A stretch of 43,795 nucleotides of DNA from assembly GCA_020148025.1 (NCBI GenBank), contig JAHCRH010000005.1:1-43795 (forward strand), given 5' to 3'. Positions 535-709 of this stretch are shown in pieces. A program made the position numbers and the translations under genes. The notes beneath the pieces are model-generated. The model was given only the letters and a program-made list of their open reading frames with translations. It was not told the origin of the DNA and ran no database searches. The stretch comes from Patescibacteria group bacterium (GTDB lineage: Bacteria > Patescibacteriota > Minisyncoccia > Minisyncoccales > JAHCRE01). Every line of letters begins with the position of its first letter. The first letter of the stretch is position 1.

Positions 535-676
535 GGTCGAATCCCCCACTAACTTTGGACATTTTTCTGAAAAAGAAAGAATTTAAATAAAAAGTTCGGG
601 AATTAAAAAATAATCTAAGACGGATTAAGAATAAATTTGGAGCCGAAGGCTCCGGTCCAAAGTTAGTGGGGGAGAA
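535..676 (+). promoter_or_regulatory. Inverted-repeat leader element, copy A (18-bp perfect arms 543-560 / 655-672; internal ggagcc-gaa-ggctcc hairpin 639-653)
   Basis: ggtcgaatCCCCCACTAACTTTGGAC ... GTCCAAAGTTAGTGGGGGagaat; homologous to 22764-22845; 37 nt before ATG at 710. Confidence 0.75.
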
Positions 677-709
677 TAAACAATTAATAATGAATGAAAA
701 ATAAAACAT

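What the first reader, a model, noticed from the sequence alone, without database searches (positions are those of the whole stretch)
535..709. Hairpin leader element (copy A) exactly 37 nt upstream of a pilin-type gene, covarying with copy B
Perfect 18-bp arms CCCCCACTAACTTTGGAC (543-560) and GTCCAAAGTTAGTGGGGG (655-672) enclose about 94 nt with a nested ggagcc-gaa-ggctcc hairpin. Copy B (22764-22845) has CCCCCACTAACTTTGTCC / GGACAAAGTTAGTGGGGG. The two differences in the left arm (GA to TC) are exactly compensated in the right arm, indicating selection on pairing. Both share the left flank aaaggtcgaat and the right flank agaat. In both, the right arm ends 37 nt before the ATG, although the downstream genes are unrelated (TrbC/VirB2-like protein versus type IV pilin). 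This suggests an undescribed cis-regulatory RNA or processing/stability element for highly expressed surface proteins.
Basis: partly seen in the sequence, partly recalled or inferred. Interest (0 to 1): 0.88.

Follow-up and report, generated by a model that had tools for sequence, protein, structure and literature searches.

The report
Mobile palindromes in Parcubacteria, not leaders
The two matching hairpins are copies of a small mobile DNA palindrome that jumped into the leaders of two pilus genes; relatives of it sit inside ribosomal RNA, RNase P RNA and, in frame, inside essential protein genes of other ultra-small bacteria, and a few ~300-base relatives carry a tiny nuclease gene that may be their engine.

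Summary
The hairpins are real, and their arms covary. The leader-RNA reading is wrong. Both sites are empty in a same-genus and a same-family species. The shared flank AAAGGTCGAA is a native 5'-leader motif into which both copies inserted, with a GAAT duplication.
The family is mobile and nearly confined to Parcubacteria. Relatives lie inside 16S rRNA, 23S rRNA and RNase P RNA, beside genes, and inside each other. One relative (G236) has 25 copies in frame inside protein genes such as IleRS, RelA, Mfd and MutM; sister species have the empty RelA site. Four-base target duplications are enriched (10 of 62 versus 1.5 expected).
Arm pairing is kept almost only as Watson-Crick pairs, through paired changes that alter the encoded protein, so the constraint acts on DNA or its copying.
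Five of 14 GIY-YIG nuclease genes found in the same DNA are bracketed by such arms (299-333 bases; 1 of 250 control ORFs). One has arms identical to nine of that genome's in-frame copies. I propose GIY-YIG palindromes as autonomous parents and the hairpins as their ORF-less offspring. Mobility is well supported; nuclease-driven movement is inferred (about 50%). The elements work like Rickettsia palindromic elements and rRNA intervening sequences but are not shown to be either.

The parts
532..541 (+). native leader motif AAAGGTCGAA, the insertion target of copy A
   Evidence: 12 copies in 484 kb against 1.07 expected, mostly 25-48 nt before an ATG; present without the hairpin in G001 and G002
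539..542 (.). left copy of the target duplication GAAT (copy A)
   Evidence: direct repeat with 674-677; test
543..560 (+). copy A, left arm
639..653 (+). copy A, inner hairpin ggagcc-gaa-ggctcc
   Evidence: sequence; covarying counterpart in relatives
655..672 (+). copy A, right arm
674..677 (.). right copy of the target duplication GAAT (copy A)
710..1093 (+). T4SS_pilin gene (PF18895) downstream of copy A; bystander
22761..22770 (+). native leader motif AAAGGTCGAA, the insertion target of copy B
   Evidence: present without hairpin in G001 and G002
22768..22771 (.). left copy of the target duplication GAAT (copy B)
22772..22789 (+). copy B, left arm
22824..22841 (+). copy B, right arm
22843..22846 (.). 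right copy of the target duplication GAAT (copy B)
22879..23301 (+). type IV pilin gene (N_methyl) downstream of copy B; bystander
35433..35601 (.). copy C: older, long ORF-less relative upstream of rpoB, with arms CCCCCCACCTATTTTG and an inner two-hairpin domain; kept in G001 (locus L091)
   Evidence: rpoB

Best explanation
Copies A and B are two insertions of a short, ORF-less mobile palindrome. The element has a ~15-nt sequence-fixed outer arm (CCCCCACTAACTTTG and variants), a few further covarying pairs, and a free interior. Shown: it is absent at these sites in close relatives, its family has entered many unrelated sites, and it often leaves 4-base target duplications. Survivors are those that do no harm: spacers and leaders, variable rRNA and RNase P helices, and in-frame copies of 3n length, the one phase without a stop in the arms. 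Inferred: the autonomous parents are ~300-bp elements made of the same kind of arms around one ~90-aa GIY-YIG nuclease gene, whose stop codon lies in the right arm in the clearest cases. The nuclease probably recognises the extruded hairpin or its foot and makes the staggered target cut, and the ORF-less copies use it in trans. The need to fold as DNA would keep the arms strictly complementary.
For: Empty A and B sites in G001 and G002, with the shared flank native there. Relatives inside 16S, 23S and RNase P RNA genes and nested in one another with a GTCAA duplication. Four-base duplications 10 of 62 against 1.5 by permutation, 0 of 1000 shuffles. G236: over 20 copies against three weak matches in 11 sister species; 25 of 27 inside long ORFs, all 25 cores 3n long and in one reading phase; RelA site empty in sister species while G236 has a single RelA gene. 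Covariation; within the coding copies the first 10 pairs are 100% Watson-Crick although pairs 3 and 4 vary. Five of 14 GIY-YIG ORFs bracketed by such arms against 1 of 250 control ORFs, Fisher p=1.1e-6; PF01541 in all five; catalytic-type residues conserved. The L106 nuclease element has arms CCCTCACTAACTTTG, identical to nine in-frame copies of that genome.
Against: No movement has been seen. The nuclease link rests on five elements, one of which may have a disrupted ORF (L304). No such GIY-YIG gene was found in the 79% of the window's own genome examined. The 25 in-frame copies have no exact target duplication and unrelated interiors, so how copies arise is not understood. GIY-YIG nucleases are known for cutting; a joining activity is not established for them.
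Confidence: 0.83

Rival explanations
1. The palindromes are ordinary MITEs moved by a classical transposase (DDE type, or HUH/Y1 acting on single-stranded hairpins); the GIY-YIG genes are passengers that inserted into or were captured by some copies.
For: Terminal inverted repeats plus 4-bp duplications; Y1 transposases are common in the order (131 of 246 genomes).
Against: No transposase ORF was found between such arms. Y1 genes occur in 15 of 23 element-bearing genomes against 131 of 246 overall, little association. The GIY-YIG ORFs fill the elements almost end to end, and the right arm supplies the stop codon in three.
Confidence: 0.33
2. An RNA element: the hairpin acts in the transcript as an RNase III site, stabiliser or intervening sequence that is cut out, and that function keeps the arms paired.
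For: Insertions in 23S rRNA variable helices, where known IVSs are cleaved by RNase III (PMC11270868). Very stable folds. The arms stay perfect while interiors differ completely.
Against: Only about 7 G-U cells against 101 two-sided changes. In-frame copies are 3n long and without stops, which removal from RNA would not require. No gene class, distance or orientation rule.
Confidence: 0.1
3. Cis-regulatory leader RNA for pilin or surface-protein genes.
For: Two copies 37 nt before two pilin genes, in leaders that share AAAGGTCGAA.
Against: Hairpin absent from orthologous leaders. The motif without hairpin precedes many other genes. Relatives lie in rRNA, RNase P and enzyme genes. No Rfam match at A or B.
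Confidence: 0.04

Closest known systems
Rickettsia palindromic elements (RPE; also Wolbachia WPE)
   Same: Short palindromes that spread through a reduced genome and sit in frame inside protein genes, adding a peptide; tolerated by enzymes (PMC10969869, PMC3767692, PMC6649704).
   Different: Different arms and phylum (Patescibacteria). Shorter here (33-93 nt cores in the in-frame copies). Arms stay perfect, while RPEs are reported to lose repeat identity with time (PMC6649704). Also in rRNA and RNase P RNA genes. A nuclease-coding long form exists.
Intervening sequences (IVS) and uncharacterised short insertions of CPR rRNA genes
   Same: Short insertions with complementary ends in variable rRNA helices. 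PMC11270868 reports many ORF-less insertions under 200 bp in CPR rRNA genes, and GIY-YIG ORFs only in insertions that are neither group I nor group II introns.
   Different: The same arm families also occur outside rRNA, in mRNA leaders and in frame in proteins. That paper does not mention inverted repeats or palindromes.
MITEs such as NEMIS/Correia elements
   Same: Terminal inverted repeats, short target duplications, no ORF in most copies, found beside genes.
   Different: The putative autonomous partner carries a GIY-YIG nuclease, not a DDE transposase; the whole partner is ~300 bp.
GIY-YIG homing endonuclease genes
   Same: PF01541 domain with the conserved Tyr, Arg and Glu positions; selfish, scattered distribution.
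   Different: No intron or intein; the gene is bracketed by palindromic arms and the insertion sites are not conserved.

Membership tests
Rickettsia palindromic elements | palindromic repeat inserted in frame in unrelated protein genes and translated | tested here: met
   25 of 25 gene copies in frame without stops in G236; sister genes lack the insert. Translation itself was not observed.
Rickettsia palindromic elements | Rickettsiales host and sequence homology to an RPE family | tested here: not met
   Exact arm-pair scan of 85,488 species representatives found only genomes titled Parcubacteria or unclassified bacterium. No direct alignment with RPE consensus sequences was made.
MITE | terminal inverted repeats and target-site duplications | tested here: met
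   (62 elements from many genomes); not met for the in-frame copies of G236
MITE | autonomous partner with the same ends | tested here: inconclusive
   GIY-YIG element L106 has the same 15-nt arms as nine short copies in G236; mobility in trans untested; none found for A and B in their own genome
23S rRNA IVS | insertion with complementary ends in a variable 23S helix | tested here: met
   met by relatives: G086 at helix 25, G085 and G165 at one shared site; not met by A and B, which lie upstream of mRNA genes
23S rRNA IVS | RNase III cleavage without ligation | not testable with these tools
   needs RNA data
GIY-YIG homing endonuclease | GIY-YIG fold and catalytic residues | tested here: met
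   long elements only:
GIY-YIG homing endonuclease | homing into a homologous insert-less site | not tested
   target sites of the five elements differ
cis-regulatory RNA | conserved position before one class of genes across species | tested here: not met
known Rfam family | covariance-model match at A, B or C | tested here: not met
   only tRNAs matched in the window

The most novel reading that the evidence does not exclude
Patescibacteria host a new class of minimal autonomous mobile DNA: a ~300-bp palindrome whose only gene is a ~90-aa GIY-YIG nuclease acting on the element's own hairpin, with ORF-less offspring that colonise rRNA, RNase P RNA and the reading frames of essential genes. It would be among the smallest self-sufficient mobile elements known and would explain part of the short and GIY-YIG insertions in CPR rRNA genes.
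Probability: 0.45. Interest if true: 0.88.

Novelty: new variant of a known kind. Interest (0 to 1): 0.76.

Why it matters
It turns a puzzling hairpin into a mobile family that breaks a usual rule: selfish DNA rarely survives inside essential genes of streamlined genomes. It offers an origin for uncharacterised short and GIY-YIG insertions in CPR rRNA genes, a second natural system besides Rickettsia for creating new protein segments by in-frame palindromes, and a testable candidate for a very small mobile element. It also warns that CPR protein annotation contains mobile peptides such as SPPTNF...KLVGD.

Tried and rejected
Leader RNA: rejected by empty orthologous sites and by locations of relatives. 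Viral origin: no exact match in viral contigs for either gap range, and only one distant GIY-YIG relative. Y1 transposase PF01797 and 23S_rRNA_IVP PF05635 as helpers: 15 of 23 and 12 of 23 element-bearing genomes against 131 and 134 of 246, no clear association. Captured host DNA as interior: interiors of G236 copies match nothing beyond short chance stretches and not each other. Removal from RNA or ribosome hopping in the in-frame copies: not needed, since lengths are 3n and stop-free. Rfam identity of the inner two-hairpin domain: no match.

Full report
Observation. The arms of copy A (543-560, 655-672) and copy B (22772-22789, 22824-22841) are perfect inverted repeats, fold far better than shuffles (z -9.4 and -8.3), and carry the compensated GA/TC difference. 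Both right arms end 37 nt before an ATG. The genes are a T4SS_pilin and a type IV pilin. Within the held contigs of its own genome the core arm with up to two mismatches forms only these two hairpin pairs of this spacing; copy C (35433-35601) is a relative with other arms.

The sites are insertions. PilC and pilin homologues were used to fetch the orthologous loci of same-genus G001 and same-family G002. Neither has a hairpin at A or B, yet both keep AAAGGTCGA(A/G) in the same place. For A the pre-insertion sequence can be read directly: GGTC-GAAT-[C5...G5 A]-GAAT-AAACAATT against GGTCGAATAAAAACAA in G002. The motif AAAGGTCGAA occurs 12 times in 484 kb (1.07 expected); with one variant base at the end, 12 of 24 copies of AAGGTCGAR have an ATG-started ORF within 66 nt, against 3 of 26 hits for four scrambled motifs. 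The shared left flank and the similar spacing are therefore native. That two of two such insertions hit the same spot of this motif may reflect target preference, or conversion of one site from the other; I cannot tell.

The family. The exact arm pair is found in only eight loci of one-per-species genomes, titled Parcubacteria or unclassified bacterium, and in none of the viral contigs. Relatives sit inside 16S rRNA (G032, helix 40 by my reading), 23S rRNA (G086 at helix 25; G085 and G165 at one shared site; G032) and RNase P RNA (G017, G054), before rplL (L032), at the 3' end of a histidine kinase gene whose stop is the TAA of the arm (L031), and nested inside another copy (L010). A covariance model of the arms (R2) hits 56 of 392 genomes of the class and 13 of 389 drawn across the phylum, six of these of the same class. 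E-values are rough, and the weakest matches may be unrelated C-rich hairpins.

Target duplications. Over 62 elements outside the G236 gene copies, a direct repeat of at least 4 bp abuts both ends in 10 (permutation mean 1.5, 0 of 1000), with typical sequences TTGA, TCAA, TAAA, TTTA and TATA; allowing one base offset, 17 against 2.7. A and B belong to the offset class (GAAT).

In-frame copies. Genome G236 holds more than 20 copies; in its 11 sister species only three weak matches were found. Of 27 copies examined, 25 lie inside long ORFs; all 25 cores are multiples of three and are read in the one phase that has no stop in the arms, giving [SL]-x-[PLI]-T-N-F...K-L-V-[GRM]-[DG]-[KE] in nearly all. 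Hosts include IleRS, MiaA, a DegP-type protease, Mfd, MutM, a PEP-utilising enzyme, RelA/SpoT and a FemAB protein. In RelA the insert falls between two residues that are nearly adjacent in the solved structure 6yxa, and sister genes lack it; one sister, G227, carries a different repeat at exactly that spot. G236 has only one RelA gene, so the interrupted gene is presumably functional.

What keeps the arms. Across 35 elements there are 101 two-sided changes and about 7 G-U cells. Within the 25 coding copies, pairs 1-10 are always Watson-Crick although pairs 3 and 4 vary (CG/AT, CG/TA) and thereby change amino acids; pair 11 links two synonymous positions (AAC/AAT and AAG/AAA) and is paired in 24 of 25. 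Interiors show no relatedness beyond chance. The constraint therefore acts on nucleic acid and, because G-U is rare, most simply on DNA folding or on its copying. Why old-looking interiors go with perfect arms is not explained.

Candidate engine. Looking for longer elements with the same arms in about 615 kb of G236 gave one of 296 nt (L106 6180-6475) filled by an 89-aa ORF with an intact GIY-YIG domain. A search of all held DNA found 14 distinct GIY-YIG ORFs; five are bracketed by inverted repeats of score 14 or more, spanning 299-333 nt (L106, L304, L262, L211, L177), against 1 of 250 size-matched ORFs (Fisher p=1.1e-6). The stop codon lies in the right arm in L106, L177 and L211. L177 lies just after pilC in G005, the same position as copy B relative to pilC, and is flanked by TTTTGA repeats. 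In L211 three palindromes stand in tandem with the nuclease in the middle one. The sample is biased, because loci were fetched around palindromes, although L262, L304 and L177 were fetched for other reasons. Close homologues of the L106 protein are few (13).

Mechanism. Shown: insertion at many sites, target duplications at part of them, a distribution that fits survival of harmless positions, and strict complementarity. Inferred: the GIY-YIG protein recognises the hairpin or its foot and cuts the target; short copies are deletion derivatives used in trans. GIY-YIG enzymes include the structure-specific nuclease SLX1 and homing enzymes (my knowledge), which makes hairpin-directed cutting plausible; strand joining would need host repair.

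Known relatives. The in-frame copies work like Rickettsia palindromic elements, and the rRNA copies like IVSs. A 2024 survey of CPR rRNA insertions (PMC11270868) lists many short ORF-less insertions, and GIY-YIG ORFs outside introns, without mention of palindromes or inverted repeats; I propose that part of them belong here. Searches of the paper library for CPR together with palindromic elements or MITEs, and for GIY-YIG with terminal inverted repeats, found no description of such elements; subscription papers are not held.

Noticed in passing
window 532-541 and 22761-22770; also L049, L050, L054, L055, L057, L058, L064, L070: AAAGGTCGAA is a recurrent native motif, often just after a TATAAT-like box and mostly 25-48 nt before the ATG, ahead of many membrane, secreted and pilin genes; possibly a transcript 5'-end or translation element.
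   Followed up: partly
window 1638-1651 / 1760-1773; L194 (G002 pilC-pilin spacer); L211: A second palindromic family with arms CCCCGTTAGAAA...TTTCTAACGGGG, seen in several genomes, once in the same spacer as copy B.
   Followed up: no
window 35433-35601; L088, L089, L090, L091, L113, L116, L015, L032: Long ORF-less elements share an inner domain of two hairpins whose loops carry CGAATAG and CTATTCG and could pair with each other; no Rfam match for the loci scanned.
   Followed up: partly
L099-L107, L130-L145 (G236): Flanks of in-frame copies follow YTYRY...RYRAR with first and fourth bases complementary (24/25 left, 25/25 right), while left and right ends avoid pairing with each other; unexplained.
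   Followed up: partly
L100 IleRS; L163 RelA of G227; L104 MutM: Other short repeats are also inserted in frame, e.g. GPSTGSGQAREE in IleRS and a GC-rich repeat at the same RelA spot in a sister species.
   Followed up: no
L112, L087 (and L083 weakly): 23S rRNA genes or their flanks that also match group I introns next to the palindromes.
   Followed up: no
L032 838-1194: A four-helix-bundle protein resembling the 23S rRNA IVS protein follows rplL close to a palindromic element (my reading of the sequence; not run against Pfam).
   Followed up: partly
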